A stretch of 40,244 bases of DNA from Solirubrobacterales bacterium (lineage in GTDB: Bacteria; Actinomycetota; Thermoleophilia; Solirubrobacterales; Solirubrobacteraceae). Shown one piece after another: positions 19,544 through 40,244 of this stretch; within the stretch, counting starts at the first letter, position 1, and each line of letters starts with the position of its first letter. The notes beneath the pieces are model-generated. The model worked only from the letters and a program-made list of their open reading frames with translations, searched no databases and had not been told where the DNA came from. The DNA lies in NCBI GenBank assembly GCA_019240655.1, contig JAFAXX010000103.1:1-40244 (forward strand). The letters run 5' to 3'. Made by a program: the position numbers and the translations under genes.

Positions 19544-19585
19544 CGCGATGTGCGCAGGCTAGTGGGCCGCCTGCGAACGTTCACC

Positions 19586-23869: not shown

Positions 23870-23975
23870 CCAAACGGATCGTATCGTCGGGCCGATACCC
23901 GCGGAGCCAGGCCTGGACGGCGATCCCTGTCGATGTCCTCGACACCCGCTGCGCACATCTATCGGTGCCGCGACG

Positions 23976-25837: not shown

Positions 25838-25868
25838 CGCGCGACCGCCCCGCAGACCCCCAGCCGCC

Positions 25869-25884
<16 letters not shown>
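25825..25884. repeat. Exact 25-bp direct repeat (35-bp period) at the drrA-drrB-like junction
   Basis: 25825-25849 and 25860-25884 are identical. Each contains the GTGA stop-start overlap on the minus strand. The 35-bp period is not a multiple of three, so it creates an extra small ORF between the two genes. Confidence 0.85.
25834..25872 (-). CDS. 12-residue ORF bridging the ABC exporter genes by GTGA overlaps
   Basis: GTG at 25872 overlaps the ATPase TGA, and the TGA at 25836-25834 overlaps the permease GTG at 25837. The peptide MRRLGVCGAVAR is a mixture of the permease start and ATPase end, as expected from junction duplication. It would let ribosomes pass from one gene to the next by coupling. 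Whether it matters is unknown. Confidence 0.4.
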
Positions 25885-26876
<992 letters not shown>

Positions 26877-26911: not shown

Positions 26912-26948
26912 TTGACCGGCCGAAGGCCGATCTGATCATATATACGCA
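26912..26948 (+). promoter_or_regulatory. Promoter for the M24-fold gene with GATC-centred AT-rich box
   Basis: TTGACC (26912-26917) is a -35-like hexamer, and CATATATA (26937-26944) supplies -10-like sequence ending four bases before the ATG at 26949, which would give a leaderless or nearly leaderless mRNA. CTGATCATATAT overlaps the -10 and resembles the GATC boxes of the LLM and hydroxylase promoters. The stretch stands out as AT-rich in very GC-rich DNA. Confidence 0.5.
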
Positions 26949-28148
26949 ATGACCGCTTCCCGCGCCGCGGCGGTGCCGCCGTCGGACGCTCGCCTGGCCG
27001 AGGACGTCGAGCGCCGCCATCGCCTGATCCGCGAGGCCGCCGAGCGCGACGGGCTCGACGCGGTGCTGGTCTGCGCCACCGAATACACCGGCTTTGAAGG
27101 GGCGATGTTCTACCTGTCGGGCTTTCGCCTCCTCCACCGTTACGCCTACGTCCTGCTGCCGGTGCACGAGCCCCCGACCAACATCTTCCCGGGCGAGGGG
27201 CGTTGGGTCGGGGATCACGCCGAGGGATGGGTCGAGGACCGGGTCTTCGCCGAGACGCCCGGGAAGTGGATCGCCCAACGACTGAAGGACCGCGGCTGGA
27301 AGCGGCTCGGCGTGTACGGCCTTGACCTCGTGATGCCGGTGCGCGACTTCGTCGAGCTGCCCGAGGAGCGGGTGGTCCGCTGGGATGCCGAGTTCGACCT
27401 CGCGCGCGCCGTCAAGTCCGAGTTCGAGCTCGAGTCCGTGCGGGAGTCGATGCGGATCAACGAGGCGGGCGTCTTCGCCGTGATGGCGGCGTGGGAGCCG
27501 GGAATGACCGAGGCCGAGTTGATGGCGGTCGCCGAGCGGGAGTTCGTCGGCCGCGGGACTCGGCGGCTGACCATGGACATGGTGCTCACCGGCCCCGAGG
27601 GAGCGGCTTGGCCGGAGATGCGCCTGCCCGACGAAAAGCGGCGCGTGCGCGAGGACGACATGCTGATCTACGGGCTCGAGGTCGCCGGCCCGGGGGGTCA
27701 CTGGGTCGAGTTCTCGCGCCCGATGTGCGCCGGCGAGCCCTCGACGGAGTCAGAGCAGATGATGCAGGCCTACCGCGAGTACCACGAGATCTGCCGCGGC
27801 GCGATGCACGCGGGCGCCACCGCCCGCGAGGTCCACCGGGCCGTCTCACGGCCGTTCCTCGAGCGCGGCTGGAAGCTCGGGCACGTGACCGGACACTCGA
27901 TAGGGATGACGATGATCGAGCATCCGCGTATCGGCGAGGCCTTCGACGTACCGCTCCGCGAGGACATGGTCTGCTCGATGCACCCACACGTGATCTCCGC
28001 CGACGAGCGGACCTGCCTGTATTTCCAGGACACCTGGCACGTGCGCGCCGACGGTGCGGCGCCGCTCAGCGACGCCCCGCTCGAGTTCTACGACCCGCGC
28101 CACGTCCGAGACCACGACGGCCGTCTACCGAGCGCGCAATCGGGGTAG
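26949..28148 (+). CDS. M24-fold (pita-bread) hydrolase-like protein with non-canonical active site
   Basis: A 399-residue protein with a creatinase-type N-terminal domain (residues 1-155) and an M24 C-terminal domain (about 160-385). The His motif GHSIGM is intact (His316), but the usual metal ligands are changed. The Asp-containing strand reads GLEVAGPGGHWVEFSR with Glu in both regions; the Glu of FTVEPG-like segments is His345 (SMHPHV); and the Glu before DT is Gln360 (FQDT). So the dimetal site of Xaa-Pro and methionine aminopeptidases looks absent. Creatinase shows that the fold can work without metal, so a C-N hydrolase acting on a small molecule is a plausible role. Location beside the Mo-hydroxylase/Liv locus supports this. 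The ATG lies just after the -10-like box. Confidence 0.82.
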   Translation: MTASRAAAVPPSDARLAEDVERRHRLIREAAERDGLDAVLVCATEYTGFEGAMFYLSGFRLLHRYAYVLLPVHEPPTNIFPGEGRWVGDHAEGWVEDRVFAETPGKWIAQRLKDRGWKRLGVYGLDLVMPVRDFVELPEERVVRWDAEFDLARAVKSEFELESVRESMRINEAGVFAVMAAWEPGMTEAELMAVAEREFVGRGTRRLTMDMVLTGPEGAAWPEMRLPDEKRRVREDDMLIYGLEVAGPGGHWVEFSRPMCAGEPSTESEQMMQAYREYHEICRGAMHAGATAREVHRAVSRPFLERGWKLGHVTGHSIGMTMIEHPRIGEAFDVPLREDMVCSMHPHVISADERTCLYFQDTWHVRADGAAPLSDAPLEFYDPRHVRDHDGRLPSAQSG

Positions 28149-28158
28149 CCCAGCCGGT

Positions 28159-28326
28159 ATGGAAATCGACCCTTCAGAGTTCACAGAGGAGCCCAGGGAG
28201 GTGCCTGAGCCCCCGCCGGACACGAGCGATCACCCCTCGCACGAGGAGCAGGTCGGTGGCCGCGGCGCCGAGGACCCGGACGAGCTCGCCGACGAGGACC
28301 GTTACCGCAAGGGCCCGGGCTGGTAG
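28159..28326 (+). CDS. Small acidic hypothetical protein
   Basis: A 55-residue, highly acidic and proline-rich protein, starting MEIDPSEFTEEPREVPEPPP and ending RKGPGW, probably disordered. Third positions are G/C-rich except in the first codons, as in real genes here. It follows the M24 gene by ten bases on the same strand, so it may be co-transcribed. There is no clear ribosome-binding site, and no family is recognised. It converges on the CoxG-like gene. Confidence 0.5.
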   Translation: MEIDPSEFTEEPREVPEPPPDTSDHPSHEEQVGGRGAEDPDELADEDRYRKGPGW

Positions 28327-28370
28327 CGCCTCCCACGCCCGCCCAGATCCCGCCAGCCCCCAGGTCCGCA

Positions 28371-28388
28371 GCGATCGCCGCCGATCGC
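28371..28388. terminator. Possible bidirectional terminator hairpin
   Basis: GCGATCG (28371-28377), loop CCGC, CGATCGC (28382-28388), between the small acidic protein gene and the convergent CoxG-like gene. No T-run on either side. Confidence 0.45.
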
Positions 28389-28397
28389 CGGCCGCGC

Positions 28398-29150
28398 CTA
28401 GCGCCGGCGCCGGCCCACCAGCCACCCGACGATCACACCGAGTAGCGCCGCGCCGGCATACCTGACCGCCGGCATCCCCGCGACCAGCGCCCCGACGTCC
28501 AGCTCGTCCGCCACCGGCGCTGCGGCACGCGGCGGCCCCCCCGCTCCCACGCCGCCGCCCACGCCGCCCGCGCCGGCGAGCGCGCCCGCCTCCGCCCCTG
28601 AGCCACCGGCGACCCCGCCAACCCCAACCTGCGCGCCGTCCGCTCCGCCGGCCTGCCCTCCGCCAACCCCCGCGACCCCGGCCATCCCCGCCCCACCATC
28701 GGGCGGCTTGGCGATCCGCTGCTCGAGGCACCGCGAGAACTCCCCCAGCACGCGCTTGCCGACGTCCTCGATCACCCCCCGCCCGAACTGGGCCTGTGGA
28801 CCGGTGATCTGCAGCTCGGTCAGCGCGCTCACGCGCGTGCCGCCGTCCAAGGACTCGAGCTGGTTGCGGATCGTCGCCATCGCCGACCCCTGTCCCTTCG
28901 CCTCGCGCGCGCTCAACACGATGACCGCGGTATGCGTTGCCTCGTCGACCTCCGAGAGCGTCGCCGTGCCGCGGTACTCGACGCGCATCGGTCCGACCTT
29001 CAGTCGCATCGAGCCGTCGTAGACGTTCTCGGTGTCGGTGGCCTGGATCGTCGCTCCCGGCAGGCAGCTGGCCACGCCCTCCATGTCGAGCAGCTCGCGC
29101 CAGACGGTCTCCACCTCGGCCCCGACCCGGAACTCGTTCTCGATGATCAT
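28398..29150 (-). CDS. coxG: CoxG-type SRPBCC protein with Gly/Ala-rich linker and C-terminal membrane anchor
   Basis: A 250-residue protein. Residues 1-150 form the CoxG SRPBCC domain: FRVGAEVETVWRELLDMEGV, SCLPGATIQATDTENVYDGS, LKVGPMRVEYRGTATLSEVD, and QITGPQAQFGRGVIEDVGKR. A long Gly/Ala/Val linker (about 165-215) follows, then YAGAALLGVIVGWLVGRRRR, a single membrane helix with an arginine-rich tail. CoxG proteins are needed for assembly or membrane recruitment of CO-dehydrogenase-type molybdenum hydroxylases. The ATG overlaps the large-subunit stop as ATGA, fixing the start at 29150. It is the last gene of the hydroxylase operon. Confidence 0.9.
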   Translation of the reverse strand: MIIENEFRVGAEVETVWRELLDMEGVASCLPGATIQATDTENVYDGSMRLKVGPMRVEYRGTATLSEVDEATHTAVIVLSAREAKGQGSAMATIRNQLESLDGGTRVSALTELQITGPQAQFGRGVIEDVGKRVLGEFSRCLEQRIAKPPDGGAGMAGVAGVGGGQAGGADGAQVGVGGVAGGSGAEAGALAGAGGVGGGVGAGGPPRAAAPVADELDVGALVAGMPAVRYAGAALLGVIVGWLVGRRRR

Positions 29151-31642
29151 GACTCGCCTTCCGCCGAGGCCGCGGCCTGCGCCGACACCCGGACTCCGCG
29201 CGGCTCGCCGCGCTCGCCGCTGTGGACCAGCCACCACACCCGCTCCCACGGGTTGTGGCTGTCGGAGACGATCGCGTCCTGGTCACCCAGCGCGTCCTGG
29301 ATCGCGCTGCAGATGGCGTGCAGCGGCGCCCCGCCGCCCTCGCCCATGCCCTTGGCGCCGTTCGGCGTGAACGGGCTCGGGGACTCGATGTCGGCGGTCT
29401 TGATGTCCGGGGCATCGAGCGCGGTGATCGCGTGGTAGTCGTAGAACGAGGCCTGCTGCAGCTGGCCGTCCCCGTCGTATTCGAAGCTCTCGTACAGAGC
29501 GGCCCCGATGCCGAGTGCGGTCGCGCCGTGAACCTGGCCCTCGACGATGCGCGGGTTTATCCGCTTGCCACAGTCGTCGACCGCGGCGTATTCGAGGATC
29601 TCGACGTGGCCGGTGTCCTCGTCGATCTCCACCACGCAGGCGTGGATCTGCGAGGCGTAGGTCAGCGTCAGGTTGCCGCGCTTCTTGTCCGGATCGGGCA
29701 CCTCGAACGGGGGCACGTACACGTGCCGGCAGTTCAGGCTGATGCGCTCGCGCAGCTCGGTCGGCAGGGCGGCGTTGTTGGCGTAGATCAGGTTCGCCAC
29801 GCCGATGAACGGGATCGCCCGCTCCTGGTCGCCGCGCACCGAGCACATGCCGTCGGCCAGCTCGATGTCCTCGGCATCGGCCTCGAGCGCGAACGCCGCC
29901 ACCTCGATGATCTCGGCCCGTAGCTTCTCCGCCGCGCCCTTGGCCGCCCCCAGCCCGGTCACCGCGAACTGGCTCGCATAGGTGCCAGAGAACGCCACGT
30001 AGGTGTTCTGCTGCTGGTTGAACCCGGCGGTCACGTGCACCTGCTCGGGACCCATCCCGAGCACGTCGCCGACCACCTGGGCGGCCGTCGTCTCGTGCGA
30101 CTGGCCCTGCGGCGTCGTCCCGAGGTTGACGTTGACCTCGCCGTACAGGTCGAGCTTCACGTAGGCCGCCTCGCCGTTGCCGGAGAACGGCAGCTCGGGG
30201 TTGATGATCCGGGCCTGGCCGAAGTTGTTGGTGCCCGAGTCGAGCGTCGAGCCGATCCCGATCCCGATCCGCTTGCCCGAGCCGCGCCCGAGCTCGCGCT
30301 GGCGCGCCCGCCACTTATCGTGATCGATCAGCTCGAGCGCGATGTCGAGCGACCGCGGCAGGTCGCCCGAGTCGTACACGCAGCCATTCGGCGTCTCGTA
30401 GGGGTAGTCGTCGGGTTGCACGTAGTTGCGCTTGCGCAGCTCCACCGGGTCGAAGCCGAGCTCGTGGGCGACGATGTCGATGATCCGCTCGATCAGCCAC
30501 AGGTGCTGCAGGCGGGAGTAGCCGCGATTGGGAATCGTCGGGCACTTGTTGGTGAGCGTCTCGGTGTAGTCGACGTGCAGGTGCTTCAGGCGGTAGCAGC
30601 CGCAGCTCACCTGCGACCAGATCACCGCGCCGAGTGGCTCGTAGTGCAGATAGGCGCCGGCGTCGTCGAAGGCGCGGGTCTTGAAGCCGAGGATCGTGCC
30701 GTCCTTCATCACCGCGACCCTGGTGTCGAGGAACGTGCGCTCGTTGCCGTGTCCACAGGAGAGCATGTGCTCGGTGCGGTACTCGGTCCACTTGGCCGGC
30801 CGCCCGGCCTTGCGGGAGAGCAGGGCCAGGGCCGCGATCTGGGGGTAGCTGCCGATCTTGTTGCCGAACGCGCCGCCGATGTCCTGGGAGGCGAACAGCA
30901 GGCGGTTGCTGGCCACCCCTAGCGTCGGCCCGATCACCATCGACGCGAACATCGGCATCTGGTTGTTGGACTTCACCTGCACCGTGTCGGTGCCCGGGTC
31001 CCAGTGCACTACGGCGGCGTTGCACTCGAGCGGCGTCGAGGAGAAGCGGTGGAAGTGCAGATGGTCGATCTCGACCACGTGGTCGGCGTTCTCGAGCGCC
31101 CAGTCGACGTCGCCCCAGTCGAACACCCCGTGCCACGCCACGTTTGTGCCGACCTGCTCGTGCAGCAGCGGCGCGTCGGCCTCGGCGGCGGCGACTCCGT
31201 CGACCACGACCGGGAGCAGCTCGTACTCGACGTCGACCAGGCCGGCGGCGTCGCGCGCCAGCTCGCGCGTCTCCGCCAACACCACCGCGACCGCGTCACC
31301 GTGGTAGCGGACCTTGTCGACGGCAAGCGGATACTCCGCGATCTTCGCCGCCGGCTCGGGCGCGATCTGGAAGAACGGCGACTCGCACAGCTCCTTGACC
31401 TCTTCCCCGGTCAGCGCCGCGTAGACGCCGTCGAGCGCCAGCGCGCGCCGCGTGTCGACCGAGACGATGCGGGCGTGGGCGTGGGGCGAGCGGACGAAGT
31501 GCGCGTACCCCTGGCGGTGCATCCACACGTCGTCGGCGAACTCTCCCTGACCCTGCAGCAGCCGGCGGTCCTCGCGCCGTGGCACGCTCACGCCGATCGA
31601 GCGGCCGATCTCGACGGCGGTATCTGCGGGGGTCGTGCTCAT
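29147..31642 (-). CDS. Molybdenum hydroxylase large subunit (xanthine dehydrogenase/CoxL family), substrate unknown
   Basis: An 831-residue molybdopterin-cytosine-dinucleotide-type catalytic subunit. Residues 20-130 form the a/b hammerhead domain (GQGEFADDVWMHRQGYAHFV, RSPHAHARI). The Moco domains include SQDIGGAFGNKIG (about 252-264), TTPQGQSHETTAAQVVGDVL, and GAKGMGEGGGAPL near residue 765, with the catalytic Glu. The active-site loop reads IPNRGYSRLQH (about 370-380). Form I CO dehydrogenases have AYxCSFR here and form II enzymes AYRGAGR. So this is neither, and the substrate must be another heterocycle or aldehyde. GAGGAGG lies six bases before the ATG at 31642. The start overlaps the small-subunit stop as ATGA. 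Neighbours are the small subunit upstream and CoxG downstream. Confidence 0.92.
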   Translation of the reverse strand: MSTTPADTAVEIGRSIGVSVPRREDRRLLQGQGEFADDVWMHRQGYAHFVRSPHAHARIVSVDTRRALALDGVYAALTGEEVKELCESPFFQIAPEPAAKIAEYPLAVDKVRYHGDAVAVVLAETRELARDAAGLVDVEYELLPVVVDGVAAAEADAPLLHEQVGTNVAWHGVFDWGDVDWALENADHVVEIDHLHFHRFSSTPLECNAAVVHWDPGTDTVQVKSNNQMPMFASMVIGPTLGVASNRLLFASQDIGGAFGNKIGSYPQIAALALLSRKAGRPAKWTEYRTEHMLSCGHGNERTFLDTRVAVMKDGTILGFKTRAFDDAGAYLHYEPLGAVIWSQVSCGCYRLKHLHVDYTETLTNKCPTIPNRGYSRLQHLWLIERIIDIVAHELGFDPVELRKRNYVQPDDYPYETPNGCVYDSGDLPRSLDIALELIDHDKWRARQRELGRGSGKRIGIGIGSTLDSGTNNFGQARIINPELPFSGNGEAAYVKLDLYGEVNVNLGTTPQGQSHETTAAQVVGDVLGMGPEQVHVTAGFNQQQNTYVAFSGTYASQFAVTGLGAAKGAAEKLRAEIIEVAAFALEADAEDIELADGMCSVRGDQERAIPFIGVANLIYANNAALPTELRERISLNCRHVYVPPFEVPDPDKKRGNLTLTYASQIHACVVEIDEDTGHVEILEYAAVDDCGKRINPRIVEGQVHGATALGIGAALYESFEYDGDGQLQQASFYDYHAITALDAPDIKTADIESPSPFTPNGAKGMGEGGGAPLHAICSAIQDALGDQDAIVSDSHNPWERVWWLVHSGERGEPRGVRVSAQAAASAEGES

Positions 31643-32133
31643 GCTGCCTCCTCGGCTCCGTTGCGCGCCGCACGCTCGATCGAGCGGATGATGTTCACGT
31701 AGCCGGTGCAGCGGCAGATGTTGCCGCGCACTGCGCGGCGGATCTCGTCTTCGCTGGGCTGCGGGTTTCGCCGCAGCAGGAACGTGGCCGCCATTACCAG
31801 TCCCGGCGTGCAGTAGCCGCACTGCAGCCCGTGCTCCTCGTGGAACGCCCGCTGGACCGCGGTCAGCTCGCCGTCCTTCGCGATGCCCTCGATCGTCTCG
31901 ATCTCGCAGCCGTCGGCCTGCGGCGCCAGCATCATGCAGCTCTTGACCAGGCGGCCGTCGACGATCACCGAGCAGGCGCCGCAGCTGCCGGTGTCACAGC
32001 CGATGTGGGTTCCCTTCATGCCCAGCGAATCGCGCAGGAAGTGCACCAGCAGCTGACGTGAGGCAACCGTGGCCTCGCGCCGCTCGCCGTTGACGGTGAA
32101 CTCGATCGCCTGCACGTTGCCTGCCTCAACCAT
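31639..32133 (-). CDS. Molybdenum hydroxylase small subunit (two [2Fe-2S] clusters)
   Basis: A 164-residue iron-sulfur protein. The plant-type cluster is at GCDTGSCGACSVIVDG with a distal Cys in KSCMML (about residues 45-68). The second, helical cluster is at GLQCGYCTPGLVMAA and RGNICRCTGYVNI (about 102-145), the all-alpha [2Fe-2S] domain. These transfer electrons from the molybdenum centre to the FAD subunit. Length and Cys spacing are normal. The ATG at 32133 overlaps the end of the medium-subunit gene by eight bases, and its own stop overlaps the large-subunit start, indicating an operon in the medium-small-large order. Confidence 0.94.
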   Translation of the reverse strand: MVEAGNVQAIEFTVNGERREATVASRQLLVHFLRDSLGMKGTHIGCDTGSCGACSVIVDGRLVKSCMMLAPQADGCEIETIEGIAKDGELTAVQRAFHEEHGLQCGYCTPGLVMAATFLLRRNPQPSEDEIRRAVRGNICRCTGYVNIIRSIERAARNGAEEAA

Positions 32134-32998
32134 GCTGCGGACCTCCGTTGCCGATCGCTTGACACACCGCTCGCCGCGCCACCACCCGCGCCATCGCGCG
32201 CCGGTACTCGGCGCTCCCGTGGGCGTCGCCCAGCGGCTCGAGGTCCGCGCCGATCCGCTCCGCCGCCGCGGCGACGGCGGCCGGCTCGGCGGCGCGGCCG
32301 CGCAGCGCCTCCTCCATCCCCGCGTGGCGGGCGGGGATCGGCGATACGCACGCGAGGACGACCCGGGCCTCCTCGATCGTCCCGTTGGCGCGGACGAGGG
32401 CGGCGGCGCGCGCGATCGCCTTCGAGTCCGCCCCGACCGCGACCGTGCTGTACCCGGCGCTTGCGCCGGCGGCCAGCGGCGGGACCCGCACGCTCGTGAG
32501 CAGTTCGCCCTCGCCCACCGCGGTCGCGAAGTAGCCGTGGAAGAAATCGCTCGCCGCCACCTCCCGCGGCCCGCCGGAGGACGCGATCACCATCGTGGCG
32601 CCGAGCGCGACGAGCAGCGGCGGCAGGTTGTTGGTCGGGTCGCTGAGGCAGCAGTTGCCGCCAATCGTGCCGGCGTCGCGGATCTGCTGATCCTCGATGT
32701 GGCCGGCCACGTCGGCCAGCATTGGCTGCGCGGAGCGTACCTCCGGCGAGTGATCGAGCTCGTCGTAGGTGACGCAGGCACCGATCTCGAGGCCCCCGTC
32801 TGGCGCCGCCGCGATCCCGCGCAGCTCTTCGAGCCGGCTGATGTCGACGAGCAGCTCGAGCGAGGCGACCCGGTGCTTGAGCACGTTGATCAGGCTCTGG
32901 CCGCCGGCCAGCGGCGCCGCGTCTTCGTTCTCGGCCAGCAGTTGGAGCGCCTCCGCAACCGTATCCGGACGGGCGTAGGCGACCGATTCAAGGAGCAT
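32126..32998 (-). CDS. Molybdenum hydroxylase FAD-binding medium subunit (CoxM-like)
   Basis: A 290-residue flavoprotein. The FAD-binding loops are PLAGGQSLINVL (about residues 29-40) and RDAGTIGGNCCLSDPTNN (about 106-123), as in the xanthine-dehydrogenase FAD domain. The C-terminal CO_deh_flav_C domain covers about residues 180-285. It passes electrons from the iron-sulfur subunit to an acceptor such as NAD or quinone. ATG at 32998 is preferred, since the FAD domain starts within a few residues and GGAGAG lies just upstream; the longer frame to 33058 adds 20 unrelated residues. The promoter-like region lies at 33037-33065. First gene of the hydroxylase operon. Confidence 0.92.
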   Translation of the reverse strand: MLLESVAYARPDTVAEALQLLAENEDAAPLAGGQSLINVLKHRVASLELLVDISRLEELRGIAAAPDGGLEIGACVTYDELDHSPEVRSAQPMLADVAGHIEDQQIRDAGTIGGNCCLSDPTNNLPPLLVALGATMVIASSGGPREVAASDFFHGYFATAVGEGELLTSVRVPPLAAGASAGYSTVAVGADSKAIARAAALVRANGTIEEARVVLACVSPIPARHAGMEEALRGRAAEPAAVAAAAERIGADLEPLGDAHGSAEYRRAMARVVARRAVCQAIGNGGPQHG

Positions 32999-33035
32999 CT
33001 CTCTCCACCCCCGTGGTCTCGTGGTTCCGCTTCGC

Positions 33036-33065
33036 GAACATTGCAGATATTTGATCAATCGTCAA
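33036..33065 (-). promoter_or_regulatory. Promoter with operator-like box of the hydroxylase operon
   Basis: On the minus strand, TTGACG (33065-33060) is followed at once by ATTGATCAAA, containing the palindrome TTGATCAA. The first 16 bases, TTGACGATTGATCAAA, match the LLM promoter at 13 of 16 positions. A -10 about 17 bases on is weak (CAATGT or AATGTT). The AT-rich patch is conspicuous here. Start codon at 32998. Confidence 0.5.
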
Positions 33066-33312
33066 GGAGCTGTGCGGTGCGCCCGGGGGCAGTGCCCGTG
33101 ACGGTGAGGTCGCGAGTCCAGCAGGGCTCGTGGCGGTGAGGTCGCGGGTCCAGTGCTCGTCGCGGTGAGGTCGTGAGTGCAGTGCTCGTGGCGGTGAGGT
33201 GCTGATGCTGATGGGCTGCGCGCCGGAGGGTCAGCGCGGGCCGAGGGACGTGGGGCGCGCAGCGTCCATGGGGCCGGGCATTCCGGGCCTCGGTCGGCCG
33301 CCGCGATCGCGC
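33066..33312. other. Non-coding gap between GntR and hydroxylase genes
   Basis: About 250 bp holding the tandem repeats and no supported gene. The sequence after 33200 is GC-rich with no clear hairpin terminator. Confidence 0.4.
33092..33200. repeat. About 3.6 copies of a 29-31 bp tandem repeat
   Basis: Copies at roughly 33092-33122, 33123-33154, 33155-33183 and a partial one at 33184-33200 share the core CGGTGAGGTCG(C/T)GAGT. They lie between the GntR stop and the hydroxylase promoter, in non-coding DNA. Tandem, not spaced, so not CRISPR. Confidence 0.8.
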
Positions 33313-34053
33313 CTACGACGCCACCACGGTCTCCGGCTCGTCGAGCAGCTCGAACAGCTCCCCGCCGCCCATCTGGGTGGCGATCAGATTGGCCGTGCGC
33401 GCCAGGTGGTTGTGGAGCTCGCGCGCGGCGGCGTCGGGATCGTGGTCGATGCAGGCCTGGAGGATCCGTTCGTGCTCGGGCTGGCGCTTGTCCAGGTTCA
33501 TCCGCACCGGCAGCACGGCGAAGCGGTAGCGCTCGCTCGACTCCCACAGGGGATGGATCAGCCGTGACATCCAGCGCGAATTCGCGGCGTCGTAGAGGGC
33601 GAAGTGAAACGCCGTGTGGGTGGCCCACAGCGGCGCCGGCCGGCGCTGCCTGAAGGCTCTCACGTGCTCGGCCAGGCGCTCGCCGGCGCGCTGGGCGTCG
33701 GCCTCGGTGAAGTTTTCGGCCGCGTGGCGCACGGCCAGAGGCTCGAGGGCCAGCCGGGCCTCGTAGACCTCGCGCAGGTCGTCGATCGACAGCTCGGTGA
33801 CCCGCGCGCCCCGGTGCGGCACGTTCTCGACCAGCCCCACCGAGTCGAGCTGGCGCAGAGCCTCGCGGATCGGCATCGGGCTCATCTCGAGCACCTCGGC
33901 CAGGTCCTCGATCGGGAGCCGCTCTCCGGCCGGCAGCACGCCGGTGATGATTGCCTCGTGCAGCGTCGCGAAGGCACGCTCGGCGAGCGTGCGGTGGCCG
34001 CCGGTGGGACGGAGCGCGGAGAGTTGTTCAGCGGCGCGCACGGCCCCGTCCAA
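33313..34053 (-). CDS. GntR-family regulator with FCD ligand-binding domain
   Basis: A 246-residue FadR-subfamily repressor-like protein. The winged helix is at residues 20-90: TLAERAFATLHEAIITGVLP, LPIEDLAEVLEMSPMPIREA, LRQLDSVGLVENVPHRGARV. The helical FCD domain (about 95-230) includes LREVYEARLALEPLAVRHA and EHERILQACIDHDPDAAARE, with the His/Asp pattern that binds a metal and carboxylate ligand in this family. The start is uncertain: the frame opens at a TTG (34053), just after a stop, and a GTG at 34041 is an alternative. It overlaps the LivM end by about 26 bases, placing it at the end of the Liv operon. A GATC-centred box lies 20-40 bp upstream, inside livM, suggesting autoregulation. 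Confidence 0.88.
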   Translation of the reverse strand: MDGAVRAAEQLSALRPTGGHRTLAERAFATLHEAIITGVLPAGERLPIEDLAEVLEMSPMPIREALRQLDSVGLVENVPHRGARVTELSIDDLREVYEARLALEPLAVRHAAENFTEADAQRAGERLAEHVRAFRQRRPAPLWATHTAFHFALYDAANSRWMSRLIHPLWESSERYRFAVLPVRMNLDKRQPEHERILQACIDHDPDAAARELHNHLARTANLIATQMGGGELFELLDEPETVVAS

Positions 34054-35095
34054 GATAGCTCATGGCCGACGCGGATCTGATCTTTGATACACGCGGCCGC
34101 CCCAGCTGCCACTCGCGGCCCCCGGTGAGGCCGCGCGGGCGCAGTACCAGCATCGCTGTCAGCAGCACGCCGAGGATCAGGTCGGCGGCGCCCGACGGCA
34201 GCGTCAGCTTGAACAGCCCCAGGTGCAGGCCGTTCTCGGCCTGGTTCAGGTAGGAGTCGAGGAGGCTGACCAGCACGGCGCCGACGGTCGCGCCCCACAG
34301 GCTCCCGGTGCCGCCGACCACGAGCATCGCCAGCGTGAGGAAGGTCAGCTCGAGGTAGACCTGCGACGGCGTGATCGAGCCGATCTGATGGACCAGCAGC
34401 CCACCGGCCAGCCCGGACACCGCGCCGGACAGCGTGAACGCGATCAAACGCTCGCGGTGGATGTCGACACCGATGGCGAGGGCCGCGGACTGGTCCTCGC
34501 GTGAGGCGCGCAGCAGGCGCCCGCGACGGCTGCGCTGGTAGGCGAAGGCCACGACGGCGGCGACGATCGCGCCCGCTGCCGCCTGAGTGAGGCCGGTGGT
34601 GGTCGGCACGAGCGACAGCGTCTGACCGCTCTGTGGCGCGATCTTGGGCCAGAAGGTGAGCAGGTTGTAGGTGATCTCGAGCACCGCGAACGTGGCGATG
34701 CCGGCGCTCAGCCCGGACAGGCGCATGAGCGGCAGGCCCACGACCAGCGCGTAGAGCGCGCCGAGCCCGGCCGCGATCGCCAGCGAGGGAAGGTTGCCGA
34801 CCGAGTGCTCGGCGATGAACGACCACAGTCCCGGCAGCACGTAGTGCTTGGGTCCGGTGGGAATCGTCAGCTCTCCCGCGGCGTAGGCGCCGATCGCCAC
34901 GAAGCTGACCTGCCCGAACGAGATCACCCCCGAGTTGCCCATGAACACGTAGAGCCCGATGACGATCGTCACCGAGACCAGCGCGGTGATGAAGTTCTGC
35001 TGCGTCGCGGTCGAAGTCAGGCTGCCGACCAGCGTCACCAGCACGATCAGAAGCACGGGCGCGAGCAGCGGCCGGATCGGCGCGAGCCGGCTCAT
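34028..35095 (-). CDS. livM: LivM-type ABC transporter permease
   Basis: A 355-residue inner-membrane permease of the branched-chain amino acid (HAAT) transporter type. It has about nine or ten helices; the family segments SGVISFGQVSFVAIGAYAAG and LSGLSAGIATFAVLEI lie near residues 58-145, and LEAxxLxxxGGxGxxxGxxxGA-type sequence (LAMLVVGGTGSLWGATVGAV) near 265-290. EAA-like loop GRLLRASREDQSAALAIGVD contacts the ATPases. The last 25 residues beyond the usual LRPRGL end are an odd basic tail that overlaps the GntR gene. The ATG overlaps the LivH stop as ATGA. Confidence 0.93.
   Translation of the reverse strand: MSRLAPIRPLLAPVLLIVLVTLVGSLTSTATQQNFITALVSVTIVIGLYVFMGNSGVISFGQVSFVAIGAYAAGELTIPTGPKHYVLPGLWSFIAEHSVGNLPSLAIAAGLGALYALVVGLPLMRLSGLSAGIATFAVLEITYNLLTFWPKIAPQSGQTLSLVPTTTGLTQAAAGAIVAAVVAFAYQRSRRGRLLRASREDQSAALAIGVDIHRERLIAFTLSGAVSGLAGGLLVHQIGSITPSQVYLELTFLTLAMLVVGGTGSLWGATVGAVLVSLLDSYLNQAENGLHLGLFKLTLPSGAADLILGVLLTAMLVLRPRGLTGGREWQLGRPRVSKIRSASAMSYLGRGRARR
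34074..34090 (-). promoter_or_regulatory. GATC-centred operator-like box upstream of the GntR gene
   Basis: GATCTGATCTTTGATAC on the plus strand, reading GTATCAAAGATCAGATC on the minus strand, lies within the livM 3' end, 21-37 bp before the GntR start. It shares the GATCAGATC half with the M24 promoter box and the AAAGATC/TTTGATC core with the other two boxes. Being inside coding sequence, some of this could be chance. Confidence 0.35.
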
Positions 35096-35979
35096 ACGCG
35101 GTCGACTCCCGACTGGCCGAGCGGCGCGAGCAGGCCCGCCGGCCGGATCAGCAGCACGAGAATCACGACGAGGAAGGTGAACGACGGCGCGAAGTTGCTC
35201 AGCGAGGCGGGCAGCTCGTCACCGAGAATCGAGGAGATGAAGCCGATCAGGAACCCGCCCGCGGTCGCCGTGGCCAGGCGGTCGATGCCGCCAAGCACCG
35301 CGCCGACCAGCGCGAGGATCGTGACGTCGAGGCCAAAGGTCGGAGTGACGAGCGGCTGCTGCACGGTCAACAGCAGCGAGACCACCGCGGCGAGGAACCC
35401 CGACATCGCGAAGGCCGCGCGGATCACGCGGTCGGCCCGCACGCCAAGCAGCCGAGCGGCGCGGAAGTCGCTCGCCGCCGCGCGCATGTGAAGGCCGATC
35501 GTCGTCCGGTTCAGCACCAGCACCGTCCCGCCCAGCAGCACCACCCCGGCCACGAGCTCGGTGATCGTCACCCACCGCAGATGCAGGCTGCCGTGGGTTG
35601 CCGTCCGGTTGAGCGCCGACAGCAGATCGGCGGTCTTGCCCTGCGGTGTGAAGGCGATCAGCCACACCGCCTCGAGCGCGAATGCCACGGCGAAGGTGGC
35701 CACGAGCGTCGTCGCCGGGCTGGCGCCGCGGAGCGGGCGGAAGGCGACCCGCTCGATCGCCACGGCCAGTGCGACGCAGACCACGAAGCAGACGACGATG
35801 CTCACGACCAGCGGTAGATTGCGCGTGAGGTAGAGCGAGTATGCCCCAGCGGTGATCAGCTCCCCCTGGGCGAAGTTGATCAGCCGCATGACGCCGAACA
35901 CGAGGGCCAGCCCGACCGCCACCAGCGCATACAGCGCGCCGACCGCGATCGCGTCGATGATCGCCTGGATCGTCTGCAT
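35092..35979 (-). CDS. livH: LivH-type ABC transporter permease
   Basis: A 295-residue permease with about eight helices. It starts MQTIQAIIDAIAVGALYALV, the standard LivH opening, then GVMRLINFAQGELITAGAYS. The EAA-like loop is NRTTIGLHMRAAASDFRAARLLGV, and GAVLGGIDRLATATAGGFLIG lies near residues 230-250. It forms the membrane channel with LivM. ATG at 35979 shares one base with the LivF stop (TGATG), so the longer frame to 36525 is excluded. Start and length are normal for the family. Confidence 0.94.
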   Translation of the reverse strand: MQTIQAIIDAIAVGALYALVAVGLALVFGVMRLINFAQGELITAGAYSLYLTRNLPLVVSIVVCFVVCVALAVAIERVAFRPLRGASPATTLVATFAVAFALEAVWLIAFTPQGKTADLLSALNRTATHGSLHLRWVTITELVAGVVLLGGTVLVLNRTTIGLHMRAAASDFRAARLLGVRADRVIRAAFAMSGFLAAVVSLLLTVQQPLVTPTFGLDVTILALVGAVLGGIDRLATATAGGFLIGFISSILGDELPASLSNFAPSFTFLVVILVLLIRPAGLLAPLGQSGVDRV

Positions 35980-36684
35980 CAGGCCAGATACGCGGCGATC
36001 ATCCGATCGGTGTCCTGCGCCTCGTCGGGGGTGAGAGACATCCGGATCCGCCCGTTGCTGAGCACGTGTGTGCGGTCGGCGAACCCGGCGATCAGCTGGG
36101 CCCGCTGCTCCACCAGGAGGATCGCCACTCCCCGCGCGCGGATGTCCGACAGCGCGCCGAGCACGGTGTCGATCACCGACGGCGCCAGCCCGAGCGACGG
36201 CTCGTCGAGCAGCAGCACAGTGGGCGCGGCGATCATCGCGCGTGCGATCGCGAGCTGTTGTTGCTGGCCTCCGGAGAGCGCTCCGGCCGGCCGCTCGCGG
36301 AACTGCCCAACGACCGGAAACAGGCCGTGGATCCAGTCCATGTCCGCGTCCAGGCCGTCTCGCGATTGCCGCCCGGCCAGGCCGAGGCGCAGGTTCTCCG
36401 CCACCGTGAGGTTGGCGAAGATGTGACGGCCCTCGGGAACCAGCGCGATCCCTCGCCTCACCGTTGCCTCCGTGGGCAGGCCCGAGATCGCTTTGCCGCG
36501 CAGACGCACGACACCGCCGGCACAAGGCACCTCGCCCATGATGGTCAAAAGCGTGGTCGTCTTGCCGGCGCCGTTGGGGCCGATCAGACCGACGATCTCT
36601 CCTCCGGCGACGGTCAGAGAGACGCCGCGAACCACCGAGATCGCCCCGTAGCGGGCCTCCACGCGGTCGAGCTCGAGCATGGGC

Positions 36685-36692
<8 letters not shown>
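35979..36692 (-). CDS. livF: LivF-type ABC transporter ATP-binding protein
   Basis: A 237-residue ATPase. Walker A GPNGAGKTTT (about residues 38-47), Q-loop segment LVPEGRHIFANLTVAENL (LivF-type), signature ALSGGQQQQLAIARAM, Walker B VLLLDEPSLGLAPSV, and H-loop replaced by Gln in LVEQRAQL, as usual in LivF. It hydrolyses ATP for uptake. GTG at 36692 overlaps the LivG stop by eight bases; an internal ATG at codon 5 is an alternative. Operon position is between LivG and LivH. Confidence 0.94.
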
Positions 36693-37467
<775 letters not shown>

Positions 37468-37476
37468 CTCGGTCGG

Positions 37477-38742
37477 TCAACCGATGCTGGCCGGCGTCGT
37501 CGCCTTCATCTCCTCGATGTACTTCGGCTTTCCGTTGACCACATGCATCACCCGGTACTGCCGGCCGTACACCGAATGCAGCGAGGGGGAGAAGCTCACG
37601 GCGCCCGAGACCGTGGGCAGGTTGTGGAAGCTCTCCATGGCCGCCGCGAGCTTGCTGCCGTCGGTCGAGCCGCCGGATTGCTTGATCGCGGCCACGATCC
37701 CGTCGATCGCCGCCGCCCCGGTCACGAAGCCGCCGGTCGCCGGCGGGTTGCCGGACGAGGTCAGCTGCTGCTCGAGCGCCTTGACGGCGGGGTCGGGGTC
37801 GTCTCCGAAGACCGACGCGTAGGTCACGTACCAGATGTTGTTGGAGACCTTCGGATCCTTGGGCAGCCAGAAGGTGCCGTCGATCGACCACGGGCCGAGG
37901 ATCGGCGTCTGGTTTCCGAGGCTGCGCAGGTCCGAGACGAACGCCGGCAGGTCGCCGGCCGGCGTCGGGTAGGTGCAGAGCGTGACGACCGCGGCCTTCT
38001 GGCCGTTCACCTTGGACGCCACCGAGCCGACGGTGTGATCGCCCTGCGTGAACTGGTCCTGCGCCACCACCTTGCCGCCGAGCTCCGTGAAGCGCTTGGT
38101 GAACGCCTGGCAGTCGTTGACCTCGTAGACGATCGACTTGTCGGTGACCACGTCGGCCGTCTTCCAGCCTTGCTTGATCGCCAGCTGGGCGAGCGCGGCG
38201 CCTTCGTCCTGGGCGACGTTGCCATAGCTAAACGCGAGCTTGCCCTGCGAGCCGAAGCGCTTGGGGCCCATCTGGTCGGTCCCGATGCAGGGAGCGACCG
38301 TGAGCAGGCTCTTGCTCAACCCGACCTCAGTCGACGGTGTGGCGAAGTCGACGTCGCAGGTCACCCATAGGACGTTCGCGCCCTTGCCGACGACATCGAG
38401 CGCGTCGGCCCGTGTGCGGCTCGGGTTCAGCTGGTCGTTCTCGACGATGAACTCGAGCTTGCGGCCGTCGACTCCGCCCTGGGCGTTGATCTTGTTGACC
38501 TCGAGCTGAGCCGCCGCGGCCGCCGGGCTGTCGAAGGGCTTCATCGTCGAGCTCTGGTCGATGGCCGCTCCGATGACGATCGGCTTCTTGCTCGCCGATT
38601 GGCCGGACGAGCCGCCGCCGCTGGTGGTGCCGGCGCCGCCGCTGGCGCTGGTGGTTTTGCTGCTGCTCGACCCACACGCGGCGAGCACGACGGCGGTCAG
38701 CACGGCGCCCAGCCACGCCGCCGACGCTTTGGTCCCTCTCAT
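37477..38742 (-). CDS. livK: LivK-type extracellular substrate-binding lipoprotein
   Basis: A 421-residue exported lipoprotein. Residues 1-23 form a signal with lipobox LAAC (Cys23) followed by a Ser/Gly-rich tether (about 24-52). The type I periplasmic-binding fold starts at KPIVIGAAIDQSSTMKPFDS, with AQLEVNKINAQGGVDGRKLE and DNQTPILGPWSIDG-like segments matching branched-chain-amino-acid/amide-binding proteins. It captures a small molecule and delivers it to LivHM. The ligand-binding residues do not tell which compound; the neighbouring hydroxylase and LLM enzyme suggest a ligand other than a plain amino acid. AAGGAGAGG lies seven bases before the ATG. It follows the LLM gene by 32 bases. 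Confidence 0.92.
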   Translation of the reverse strand: MRGTKASAAWLGAVLTAVVLAACGSSSSKTTSASGGAGTTSGGGSSGQSASKKPIVIGAAIDQSSTMKPFDSPAAAAAQLEVNKINAQGGVDGRKLEFIVENDQLNPSRTRADALDVVGKGANVLWVTCDVDFATPSTEVGLSKSLLTVAPCIGTDQMGPKRFGSQGKLAFSYGNVAQDEGAALAQLAIKQGWKTADVVTDKSIVYEVNDCQAFTKRFTELGGKVVAQDQFTQGDHTVGSVASKVNGQKAAVVTLCTYPTPAGDLPAFVSDLRSLGNQTPILGPWSIDGTFWLPKDPKVSNNIWYVTYASVFGDDPDPAVKALEQQLTSSGNPPATGGFVTGAAAIDGIVAAIKQSGGSTDGSKLAAAMESFHNLPTVSGAVSFSPSLHSVYGRQYRVMHVVNGKPKYIEEMKATTPASIG

Positions 38743-38774
38743 GGCACACCTCTCCTTATCTTGTGACGACGCCC

Positions 38775-39866
38775 TCACTGGGCCGCCGCGCCGACGGTCT
38801 CGGCCGCCCGCGCCGGCGCGGCCTGGAAGTGGGGCATCACCAGGTCGGCGAACATCTCCTGCGTCTTGATCGCCTTCCAGTGCTCGATGCCGCCGGGGTT
38901 CACTGTGATCGCGACCTCGGTCAGCCCCGCGCATACCTCCCGCGTCTGCTCGATCCGCTCGATCACGTCGGCCGGCGTGCCGACCCAAACGATGTCGCCG
39001 GCGATCATCTCGTCGTAAGGCGTCGCGGCCAGCTGCTCCATGATCCCCGAGGCGTAGAACCCGTAGCCGGCCGCCTGCAGCTCGGCGTCGGAGGCCCGCT
39101 CGGCCAGCGGCGATGCGTTGCCTTCGAGGAAGCCGCGCATCCCCCGCTCGGCGTCGCGCTTGGCCACGTCTCGGTCCTCGTCCATGTAGCAGGCGTGGAT
39201 CCAGACGATGTCCGGCTCGTTGCCGTGCGCGGCACAGGTCTCGCGGTAGATGTCGAGCTGGGCCTCGAGCGCCTTGTAGGGCAGCAGCGGCGGCACCGCG
39301 ACCGAATAACCCTTGCGCCCGGCCAGTTCATAGGTGGAGTCGCTCGTCCCTCCCACGAACACGCGCAGCTTTCGCGTGGGGGGTGGCGGCACGATGTGCG
39401 AGTCGCTCACGCTGTAGAACCTGCCCTCGTGCGAGAAGCGCTCGTTCTCGAGCGCTTTGAAGAACAGCTCCATCGACTCCTCGTAGAGCTCTTTGACGTC
39501 CTCGAACCGCACGCCCGCCTTCGGCGGGATCCAGCCGTGCCCGCGGCCGACGCCGAACTCGTAGCGGCCGTCGAGCAGGATCTCGGCCTCCGCGACGCGC
39601 GAGGCCAGCATCGTCGGGTTGTGGTAGGGCAGGACGTGGAGCATCGTCCGGAAGTTGATCTGCCTGGTCTTCGGCGCCAGCTGGGCGAAGAACGACAGCG
39701 GGTCGGGCGAGATCGAGAACCTCGGGAAGAACAGGTGCTCGATGATCGCGTAGCTCGAGTAGCCGAGCCGGTCGGCGTGGATGATCTGCTCGGCGACTTC
39801 GGCGTACAGGCGCTCCGCCGACTTGCCGGGCCAGTGCTGCATCTCGGAGTAGATGCTGAACCTCAT
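38775..39866 (-). CDS. LLM-class flavin-dependent oxidoreductase
   Basis: A 363-residue TIM-barrel enzyme of the bacterial-luciferase-like superfamily, using FMN or F420. Typical segments: AIIEHLFFPRFSISPDPLSFFA (residues about 40-60), FRTMLHVLPYHNPTMLASRVAEAE (72-95), LLDGRYEFGVGRGHG (97-111, flavin phosphate region) and VFVGGTSDSTYELAGRKGYS (about 169-188). The enzyme would oxygenate or oxidise a small organic substrate in the cytoplasm. It is the first gene of the transport operon and has GAGGAGG upstream of the ATG at 39866. Cofactor choice cannot be read; no separate flavin reductase gene is visible nearby. Confidence 0.92.
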   Translation of the reverse strand: MRFSIYSEMQHWPGKSAERLYAEVAEQIIHADRLGYSSYAIIEHLFFPRFSISPDPLSFFAQLAPKTRQINFRTMLHVLPYHNPTMLASRVAEAEILLDGRYEFGVGRGHGWIPPKAGVRFEDVKELYEESMELFFKALENERFSHEGRFYSVSDSHIVPPPPTRKLRVFVGGTSDSTYELAGRKGYSVAVPPLLPYKALEAQLDIYRETCAAHGNEPDIVWIHACYMDEDRDVAKRDAERGMRGFLEGNASPLAERASDAELQAAGYGFYASGIMEQLAATPYDEMIAGDIVWVGTPADVIERIEQTREVCAGLTEVAITVNPGGIEHWKAIKTQEMFADLVMPHFQAAPARAAETVGAAAQ

Positions 39867-39889
39867 GATCCTCCTCGTGCCCTCGTTTT

Positions 39890-39952
39890 ACGCCCCGGCT
39901 TCGCCCCGGGTCACGCCCCGGCTTCGCCCCGGGGTCACACGCCCCGGCGTGG
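39890..39952. repeat. Two and a half copies of a 23-24 bp direct repeat in the LLM leader
   Basis: ACGCCCCGGCTTCGCCCCGG occurs at 39890-39909 and 39913-39932, with a partial third near 39939. Each copy can form a small hairpin (GGCTTCGCC). They lie in the 5' leader of the LLM operon if the promoter at 39995-40022 is used. Confidence 0.75.
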
Positions 39953-39960
39953 TTGGTCCC

Positions 39961-39978
39961 GCGGGCCTCACGGCCCGC
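39961..39978 (-). other. Leader stem-loop
   Basis: GCGGGCC (39961-39967), loop TCAC, GGCCCGC (39972-39978), within the predicted 5' leader of the LLM operon, about 10 bases after the predicted transcription start. Could be a terminator for the opposite strand, an mRNA stabiliser or an attenuator. Confidence 0.4.
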
Positions 39979-39994
39979 TGTTGGATTGGGCGAC

Positions 39995-40022
39995 AGTATC
40001 CCCGAGTTAGATCAAATGTCAA
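39995..40022 (-). promoter_or_regulatory. Promoter and operator-like box of the LLM-Liv-GntR operon
   Basis: On the minus strand, TTGACA (40022-40017), a 16-base spacer and GATACT (40000-39995) make a good sigma-70-type promoter, with predicted start near 39988 and a leader of about 120 nt. The spacer begins TTTGATCTAA, so TTGACATTTGATCTAA matches the hydroxylase promoter at 13 of 16 bases. A protein bound there would block RNA polymerase; the GntR encoded at the operon end is the obvious candidate. Confidence 0.6.
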
Positions 40023-40085
40023 ACATCATCCGGCTCTGGGACGTTCGCTTAGCGCTACGAAAACATGTGCCAAGCTTGCGGCGCG

Positions 40086-40244
40086 ATGGCCGGCGAGTAC
40101 GACGCGATCCTGATCGGCGCCGGGCACAACGCGCTGGTCTGCGCCCTCTACTTGGCGCGGGCGGGGTGGCGCGCGCTCGTGCTCGAGCGCTCGGACCGGC
40201 CCGGCGGCGCGGTGCAGAGCGGTGAATTGACTCGCCCGGGATTC
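40086..40244 (+). CDS. FAD-dependent oxidoreductase, PYROXD2/phytoene-dehydrogenase-like, N-terminal part
   Basis: Only the first 53 codons are in the window. The sequence begins MAGEYDAILIGAGHNALVCA, with the GxGxxx dinucleotide-binding loop as GAGHNA, then an acidic strand end VLERS and RPGGAVQSGE. GAGHNxLV is the hallmark of the PYROXD2-like branch of amine-oxidase/phytoene-desaturase FAD enzymes. It is divergent from the LLM gene, sharing a 220-bp intergenic region with the operator-like box, so joint regulation is likely. Unlike the CrtI-like start at the left end, this branch is usually not a carotenoid enzyme. Substrate unknown. Confidence 0.75.
   Translation, partial: MAGEYDAILIGAGHNALVCALYLARAGWRALVLERSDRPGGAVQSGELTRPGF

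What the first reader, a model, noticed from the sequence alone, without database searches (positions are those of the whole stretch)
26949..40244. Possible undescribed catabolic system: LLM oxidoreductase + LivKGFHM + GntR + Mo hydroxylase + M24-fold enzyme
Eleven minus-strand genes run in order LLM oxidoreductase, LivK, LivG, LivF, LivH, LivM, GntR, then medium, small and large Mo-hydroxylase subunits and CoxG, almost all overlapping or within tens of bases of the next. An M24-fold protein with an altered active site and a PYROXD2-like FAD enzyme flank it. Established families: Liv systems import small polar molecules; Mo hydroxylases hydroxylate heterocycles or aldehydes; LLM enzymes are flavin oxygenases. 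Inference: a single pathway importing and oxidising a nitrogen heterocycle or amide-like compound, with C-N hydrolysis by the M24 protein. I do not recognise this exact combination.
Basis: partly seen in the sequence, partly recalled or inferred. Interest (0 to 1): 0.7.

Follow-up and report, generated by a model that had tools for sequence, protein, structure and literature searches.

The report
Catabolic regulon, probably for nitrogen aromatics
The window carries about half of a conserved set of uptake, oxidation and hydrolysis genes in uncultured actinobacteria that appear to be switched on together to consume one small nitrogen-containing compound, probably aromatic, whose identity is unknown.

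Summary
The gene list is right. Orthologues of the window genes recur together in three families of the class, in G407 (another family of the phylum) and in an Acidimicrobiia MAG. With them stand genes missing from the window: a second, F420-reductase-like LLM, an M20 aminohydrolase, an FAH hydrolase, a second M24, two ketopantoate-reductase-like enzymes and often a homocitrate-synthase-like enzyme. In the window's own genome five of these begin another contig.

A palindromic site stands before M24, CoxM and LLM2: the only exact matches to YTGATCAWATAT in the 4.06-Mb genome. It recurs before cluster genes in relatives and led to cluster pieces not yet fetched. So there are at least two minus-strand units, not one 11-gene operon, in one probable FCD-GntR regulon that includes M24.

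CoxL is not CO dehydrogenase. M24 has lost four of five metal ligands. M20 is closest to 5-nitroanthranilate aminohydrolase. Best reading: import and breakdown of a nitrogen-containing aromatic or heteroaromatic compound; substrate and chemistry are inferred. CoxL also occurs outside the cluster, and LLM is not universal.

The parts
38775..39866 (-). LLM-class oxidoreductase (luciferase-like monooxygenase fold; FMN or F420 not settled)
   Evidence: PF00296 E 1.4e-49; nearest solved 7bip luciferase-like monooxygenase E 1.2e-25; best NCBIfam TIGR03619 98.6 bits, below its 166.9 cut-off; found in 5 of 232 genomes of the order, all 5 with CoxL
37477..38742 (-). LivK-type substrate-binding protein
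36685..37467 (-). LivG ATPase
   Evidence: ABC_tran plus BCA_ABC_TP_C
35979..36692 (-). LivF ATPase
   Evidence: ABC_tran
35092..35979 (-). LivH permease
   Evidence: BPD_transp_2 in the enclosing ORF 35092-36525; start overlaps the LivF stop
34028..35095 (-). LivM permease
   Evidence: BPD_transp_2 E 5.3e-32
33313..34053 (-). FCD-type GntR regulator, presumed to bind the operator
   Evidence: FCD E 8.4e-24, GntR E 2.4e-14; homologues (43-84%) on cluster contigs of G018, G010, G009, G202, G407, G249, G081, G004 and G060
33047..33058 (-). operator-like site TTGATCAAATAT, about 50 bp before the CoxM ATG
   Evidence: one of 3 exact YTGATCAWATAT matches in the 4.06-Mb genome
32126..32998 (-). CoxM-like FAD subunit of the molybdenum hydroxylase
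   Evidence: FAD_binding_5 plus CO_deh_flav_C; start by homology
31639..32133 (-). CoxS-like 2Fe-2S subunit
   Evidence: Fer2 plus Fer2_2
29147..31642 (-). CoxL-like molybdenum subunit, subfamily with loop NRG(Y/F)SR(L/M)Q
   Evidence: Ald_Xan_dh_C, MoCoBD_1, MoCoBD_2; nearest solved quinoline 2-oxidoreductase E 2e-112; loop kept in 25 of 25 relatives looked at
28398..29150 (-). CoxG-like SRPBCC protein; Gly/Ala-rich linker and hydrophobic C-terminal tail (seen by eye)
   Evidence: COXG E 1.4e-16
26949..28148 (+). M24-fold protein with substituted metal site (G242, E254, H316, H345, Q360)
26932..26943 (+). operator-like site CTGATCATATAT, ending 5 bp before the M24 ATG
   Evidence: exact match, genome-wide scan
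40007..40016 (-). weaker operator-like site TTTGATCTAA between the divergent LLM and PYROXD2-like genes
   Evidence: degenerate scan; not in the genome-wide list
40086..40244 (+). start of a PYROXD2 / carotenoid-desaturase-like FAD oxidoreductase, cut by the contig end
   Evidence: 53 codons; 83% to the full-length gene in the G010 cluster; that gene: Amino_oxidase, crtI/CrtO-type NCBIfam models below cut-off

Best explanation
It is about half of a conserved catabolic regulon of uncultured actinobacteria. Shown by sequence: the genes are linked or co-occur across genera, families and classes, and a shared palindrome precedes several of the units. Inferred: the FCD-GntR protein binds that palindrome and lets go when an inducer arrives. 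LivKGFHM then imports a small nitrogen-containing aromatic or heteroaromatic compound. CoxMSL, helped by CoxG, hydroxylates a ring carbon with water. The LLM flavoenzyme, the PYROXD2-like enzyme and the F420-reductase-like LLM2 carry out further ring oxidation or reduction. M20 removes a ring amino group by hydrolysis, as 5-nitroanthranilate aminohydrolase does. The two M24 proteins break a further C-N bond; the window one does so without the classical dinuclear metal site, as creatinase and ectoine hydrolase are recalled to do. FAH splits an acylpyruvate-like ring-fission product, and the ApbA and homocitrate-synthase-like enzymes handle the 2-oxo acids. The order of steps and the substrate are inference.
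For: Synteny in relatives: G010, G239, G407, G234, G249 and G274 carry long versions on one contig. LLM2, M20, FAH and M24b stand in that order in 12 of 15 LLM2 loci read, once with an MBL gene between. Five genes missing from the window are in the own genome. Operator: 3 of 3 exact YTGATCAWATAT matches of the genome lie before M24, CoxM and LLM2. YTGATCAAATRT gives 16 matches in 9 of 16 genomes, 0 in the reversed control, 0 in the 5 genomes taken as lacking the markers. Six of the 16 were new; 3 lead to Liv, PYR and GntR genes of the same cluster and 2 to AKR-OCD pairs that in G004 adjoin CoxMSLG. Co-occurrence. CoxL nearest to quinoline 2-oxidoreductase, GMGE glutamate kept. M20: 5-nitroanthranilate aminohydrolase E 6.4e-50 against 5.3e-17 for the next enzyme, and the same Asn in NxKG in 14 of 14. 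In Mesorhizobium loti plasmid pML2037 the same CoxL subfamily with a PYR homologue (46%) and FCD regulators adjoins genes that I read, from memory, as a nicotinate cluster.
Against: No enzyme or ligand has been tested. CoxL of the same subfamily also occurs without the cluster: in the closed genome G066 and at two G091 loci the 20 kb read hold CoxMSL but otherwise only distant relatives (39% or less) of generic families. G084 has LivKGFHM orthologues but is not among the CoxL hits. LLM was not found in genome G060 nor in the regions read of G234, G249 and G274. No ring-cleaving dioxygenase is among the families mapped, so ring opening would fall to a flavoenzyme; but not every neighbouring ORF was scanned. 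The operator pattern was partly drawn from the same sites it was tested on, and two cluster genomes (G202, G229) have no match to it. LivK's fold match does not separate amino-acid from aromatic-acid binders. No homocitrate-synthase-like orthologue was found in the own assembly (best 37%); the second ApbA was not searched for there.
Confidence: 0.55

Rival explanations
1. Two or more separate catabolic functions share a regulator and a neighbourhood: Liv imports an ordinary nutrient, CoxMSL works on another compound, and the LLM2-M20-FAH set on a third.
For: CoxL without the rest in G066 and at two G091 loci; Liv without a CoxL hit in G084; LLM not universal; Liv and Cox units on different contigs in G060, G004 and G217.
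Against: The same palindrome before CoxM, M24, LLM2, PYR and LivK; co-occurrence within the order; repeated linkage across families and classes.
Confidence: 0.22
2. Peptide, lactam or compatible-solute pathway: M20 and M24b act as real peptidases or amidases, Liv imports an amino-acid derivative, and the Mo enzyme and flavoenzymes oxidise the released amine or aldehyde, as in ectoine use (M24 plus M20, sometimes an OCD-family gene; recalled).
Against: M20 is much nearer to an aromatic aminohydrolase than to deacylases and has Asn where canonical M20 enzymes are recalled to have the bridging Asp; ectoine hydrolase cut-offs are not reached; FAH, Mo hydroxylase and two LLMs are not needed for ectoine.
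Confidence: 0.15
3. CO oxidation or general aldehyde scavenging: CoxMSLG is a respiratory CO or aldehyde dehydrogenase and its neighbours are incidental.
For: Top NCBIfam names are aerobic CO dehydrogenase and glyceraldehyde dehydrogenase.
Against: Scores far below those cut-offs (544 against 950; 476 against 790); the CSFR loop of CO dehydrogenase is absent; conserved linkage to catabolic genes.
Confidence: 0.06

Closest known systems
Three-subunit molybdenum hydroxylases of N-heterocycle degradation (quinoline 2-oxidoreductase Qor; 6-hydroxypseudooxynicotine dehydrogenase Kdh)
   Same: Same subunit plan and domains, catalytic GMGE glutamate kept; Qor is the nearest solved large subunit.
   Different: Active-site loop NRG(Y/F)SR(L/M)Q instead of Qor's AYRGVGF; linked to Liv, LLM2, M20 and FAH.
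5-nitroanthranilate degradation (Bradyrhizobium JS329)
   Same: An aminohydrolase starts the pathway by hydrolytic removal of the ring amino group (passages of PMC10306065); it is the closest solved relative of the cluster M20.
   Different: There a monocupin dioxygenase opens the ring; none is among the families mapped in this cluster, which has LLM and Mo enzymes.
Riboflavin/lumichrome catabolism (rcaE; lum cluster of Nocardioides simplex)
   Same: Soil actinobacterial catabolic cluster with a xanthine-oxidase-type enzyme, a putative metallohydrolase, a putative FAH and transport-related genes; flavin monooxygenase RcaE in another strain (abstract and passages of PMC12746152).
   Different: Uses P450, Rieske and catechol dioxygenases and a thiamin-dependent enzyme; no LLM2, M24 or ApbA named in what I saw.
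Trigonelline (tgn) and uracil (rut) ring opening by LLM-family flavin monooxygenases (recalled)
   Same: LLM enzyme opening an N-heterocycle followed by hydrolases.
   Different: No Mo hydroxylase, LivKGFHM or F420-type LLM recalled there; not compared by any search.
Ectoine utilisation (EutD/DoeA M24 plus DoeB M20)
   Same: M24 and M20 hydrolases together (recalled); M24 fold nearest to EutD.
   Different: Sequence scores far below DoeA cut-offs; substituted metal site; M20 of the aromatic aminohydrolase type.

Membership tests
Aerobic CO dehydrogenase (CoxL, form I) | AYxCSFR-type loop with the Cu-binding cysteine (motif recalled; seen as ACSFR in the aligned 8uem chain) | tested here: not met
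   Window has PNRGYSRLQH at that place; NRG(Y/F)SR in 25 of 25 relatives
Aerobic CO dehydrogenase (CoxL, form I) | reaches the curated NCBIfam cut-offs | tested here: not met
   544 bits against 950 and 435 against 991
Xanthine-dehydrogenase-family Mo hydroxylase, three subunits | FAD, 2Fe-2S and molybdopterin subunits with their domains and the catalytic glutamate | tested here: met
   GMGE in 24 of 25 CoxL, the other cut by its contig end
Quinoline 2-oxidoreductase | hydroxylation next to the ring nitrogen | not testable with these tools
   Nearest solved relative only
Branched-chain amino acid LivK | reaches the curated NCBIfam cut-off | tested here: not met
   PRK15404 49 bits against 477
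Branched-chain amino acid LivK | binds leucine, isoleucine or valine | not testable with these tools
   Top fold matches are LivJ 38.8, LivK 38.0 and a 4-hydroxybenzoate-bound protein 37.6
Liv-type ABC importer | SBP, two permeases and two ATPases in one unit | tested here: met
FCD-GntR regulon | regulator gene in the cluster and a shared palindrome before several units | tested here: met
FCD-GntR regulon | the regulator binds that palindrome | not testable with these tools
   No binding data
M24 dinuclear metallopeptidase | five metal ligands (D, D, H, E, E; recalled) | tested here: not met
   G or S, E, H, H, Q in 14 of 14 orthologues; only the histidine kept
Ectoine hydrolase DoeA/EutD | reaches the curated NCBIfam cut-off | tested here: not met
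   25.6 bits against 575 and 23.6 against 613
Creatinase/prolidase fold group | M24 domain with Creatinase_N domain and that fold | tested here: met
5-nitroanthranilate aminohydrolase (off-window M20, G000:C155) | close sequence relation and the Asn of the NxKG motif | tested here: met
   E 1.2e-49 for the own-genome protein; Asn in the enzyme and in 14 of 14 orthologues
5-nitroanthranilate aminohydrolase (off-window M20, G000:C155) | hydrolytic deamination of an aromatic amine | not testable with these tools
   No activity data
LLM class | Bac_luciferase domain | tested here: met
   for LLM; for LLM2 (G239 copy)

The most novel reading that the evidence does not exclude
A complete, undescribed route for mineralising a nitrogen-containing aromatic or heteroaromatic compound in uncultured actinobacteria. 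It uses Mo hydroxylation, F420- and flavin-dependent LLM steps in place of a ring-cleaving dioxygenase, hydrolytic deamination by an M20 aminohydrolase of the 5-nitroanthranilate type, and a pita-bread enzyme that has swapped its metal ligands. All of it would be under one FCD-GntR operator that can be used to find the whole pathway in fragmented metagenome-assembled genomes.
Probability: 0.35. Interest if true: 0.75.

Novelty: new variant of a known kind. Interest (0 to 1): 0.55.

Why it matters
Mo hydroxylase genes of these mostly uncultured actinobacteria are easily labelled 'CoxL' and read as CO oxidation (the top family name is CO dehydrogenase). This cluster ties one such subfamily to a large catabolic gene set instead, gives a loop motif that tells it apart, and gives an operator and a marker set by which the rest of the pathway can be found in fragmented genomes. 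If the substrate were identified, it could name a carbon or nitrogen source for these organisms and a new use of M20- and M24-fold enzymes.

Tried and rejected
Aerobic CO dehydrogenase: rejected on the active-site loop and the cut-offs. One 11-gene operon: weakened by the GntR-CoxM gap with its own site. M24 as an unrelated neighbour: rejected, because in 13 of 14 loci it lies beside ApbA, LLM2, FAH/PYR or CoxG (in G009 only an ADI gene is seen on a 6.4-kb contig) and it carries the operator. DrrA/DrrB (25073-26876) as parts: no orthologue kept in the other clusters at E 1e-12. OCD/AKR as core members: left open; OCD is in 14 of 232 genomes, 7 of them not among the CoxL hits, and in the own genome it lies 36 kb from LLM2. 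The four one-mismatch operator matches elsewhere in G000 were read with 1.6-3.0 kb around them; no cluster gene apart from a 27% SDR match. Plasmid searches gave one CoxL relative (Mesorhizobium) and no LLM. The LivK model does not tell the ligand. Five literature searches were aimed at the cluster: 50, 72 and 100 held no paper, 99 held two unrelated ones, and of the 88 I saw the 15 listed, none on this cluster by title and abstract start. One search (operator letters) listed 10 of 70, none bacterial regulation by title. Searches looked for background. Subscription papers are not held. The marker searches used different E cut-offs (CoxL 1e-250, LLM and LivK 1e-80, LLM2, M24 and OCD 1e-70), and the p-values ignore phylogeny and incompleteness.
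Full report
Observation. The window is one contig (G000:C170) of a 4.06-Mb, 191-contig genome. Contigs of the same-genus genomes G018, G004 and G010 have the lengths and matches of records named Solirubrobacterales MAGs, so the source is very likely such a MAG. Overlaps are tight except between GntR and CoxM. The PYROXD2-like gene is only its first 53 codons.

Linkage. A search of 299 relatives gave CoxL in 20 genomes, 21 loci, at E <= 1e-250; a draw of 296 genomes of the phylum added G407 at E <= 1e-200. With L007 that is 23 loci. I mapped the window proteins and sixteen neighbouring families on them. Liv orthologues lie on the CoxL or CoxMS contig in 10 of 23: G000, G010, G213, G009 (contig C241, CoxMS), G234, G239, G249, G259, G274 and L007. 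Of the other 13, four are contigs under 10 kb (G018, G004, G027, G116). G004, G060 and G217 have the Liv set on another contig. G407, G264 and G081 carry other cluster genes. G297 shows only CoxMSL in the 10.6 kb read, with an FAH orthologue on another contig. G066 and the two G091 loci show CoxMSL with only distant relatives (39% or less) of generic families in the 20 kb read; G091 has a Liv set beside a PYR gene elsewhere. G066 is a closed genome and is not among the LLM, LLM2, M24 or LivK hits, so this CoxL subfamily is wider than the cluster.

The missing half. The neighbours outside the window are LLM2 (nearest to F420-dependent methylene-tetrahydromethanopterin reductase, below its cut-off), M20, FAH, a second M24 (M24b), a homocitrate/isopropylmalate-synthase-like enzyme (HMGL) and two ApbA/PanE-like reductases. 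In 12 of 15 LLM2 loci read (G010, G060, G081, G213, G000, G407, G239, G234, G249, G264, G274, G259), LLM2, M20, FAH and M24b stand in that order, in G259 with an MBL gene between. G004 and G229 run to a contig end, and G202 has FAH about 11 kb away. In the window's own genome, C155 begins with ApbA, M24b, FAH, M20 and LLM2, in the orientation that follows PYR in G010. So C170 and C155 may be neighbours; this is inference. No HMGL orthologue was found in the own assembly (best 37%); G018 also lacks one between ApbA and M24b. The second ApbA was not searched for in the own genome.

Regulon. A degenerate scan found TTTGATCAAA-like palindromes before CoxM, LLM, LLM2, M24, PYR, FAH, HMGL or LivK in many, not all, of the contexts. 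In the whole own genome YTGATCAWATAT has three exact matches, before LLM2 (C155), M24 and CoxM, and four one-mismatch matches near no cluster gene; the reversed control gave 0 and 1. The pattern was drawn from these sites, so exclusivity rather than presence is the finding. A further test used YTGATCAAATRT on 16 genomes: 16 matches in 9 genomes, reversed control 0 throughout. Two cluster genomes, G202 and G229, had none. Five genomes picked because they were not among the CoxL, LLM, LLM2 or M24 hits (G026, G011, G016, G035, G150) had none; G011 was later found to have OCD. Twelve of the 16 matches adjoin core cluster genes, two precede AKR-OCD pairs, one a sugar-type ABC importer and one an alpha/beta hydrolase. 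Ten of the 16 lay in stretches already scanned. The six new ones: two on G060:C72, which proved to carry LivMHFGK, PYR and GntR; one before PYR on G009:C165; two before AKR-OCD; one before the ABC importer. That the GntR protein binds the site is inference.

Co-occurrence in the 232 genomes of the order: CoxL 13 (the order members among the hits), LLM 5, LLM2 8, M24 9, LivK 9, OCD 14. Of 15 pairs tested, shared counts run from 3 (LLM-LLM2, p 2.6e-4, the weakest) to 8 (CoxL-M24 and CoxL-LivK, p 6.2e-11); LLM2-M24 share 7 (p 4.4e-11), CoxL-LLM 5 (2.4e-7), CoxL-LLM2 6 (2.2e-7), CoxL-OCD 7 (7.6e-7). The values ignore phylogeny and incompleteness. FAH orthologues are frequent in family f7: 29 of 219 genomes of the class, 26 of them f7.

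Mechanism. Gene presence, linkage, sites and residue changes are shown. Import, ring hydroxylation, deamination, ring opening, acylpyruvate cleavage and 2-oxo acid handling are read from family chemistry. The nitrogen-aromatic class is favoured by M20, CoxL and the Mesorhizobium plasmid neighbourhood, where the CoxL/PYR/FCD module lies near a MarR regulator, a 2Fe-2S protein, a long Mo protein, an FAD monooxygenase, an alpha/beta hydrolase and an Asp/Glu racemase. I read these as nic-type nicotinate genes from memory; no call tests it.

Known or new. Compared with riboflavin/lumichrome (outline, abstract and passages of PMC12746152), 5-nitroanthranilate (passages), ectoine and, from recall, trigonelline, uracil and nicotinate pathways, none that I know has this set. 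The literature searches aimed at it listed no paper on it. All families are known; the combination, the operator and the altered M24 site are new as far as these searches reach.

Noticed in passing
L048 (Mesorhizobium loti pML2037) 1-32313: Two CoxL copies of the same NRG(Y/F)SR subfamily with a PYR homologue and FCD regulators near genes that look like a nicotinate-degradation cluster (by eye), and a five-gene ABC importer.
   Followed up: partly
window 13715-15652: A sugar transporter (Sugar_tr) looks split: 15044-15652 matches profile 173-376, and the first residues of the SIS-domain ORF 13715-15004 match 395-452. A frameshift or assembly error is possible.
   Followed up: no
window 8208-15004: Sugar-type block: alpha-galactosidase, PfkB kinase, MmgE/PrpD, amidohydrolase, SIS protein.
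   Followed up: no
window 18779-24827: GntR-aminotransferase (MocR-like) regulator with MFS, M20 peptidase, EamA and glycine-transporter-family genes, on the minus strand.
   Followed up: no
window 39884-39960 and 33060-33310: Short GC-rich direct repeats, seen by eye, lie upstream of LLM and between GntR and CoxM.
   Followed up: no
G000:C155 38989-42611 (L091, L092); L085 425-4023: The OCD gene lies beside genes that look by eye like tryptophan 2,3-dioxygenase and a class V aminotransferase; in G081 and G009 an AKR-OCD pair carries the operator.
   Followed up: partly
L093-L094 (G084:C1 3776976-3781564): LivKGFHM orthologues (59-66%) in a closed genome that is not among the CoxL hits; a 26% LLM match lies about 7 kb away.
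   Followed up: partly
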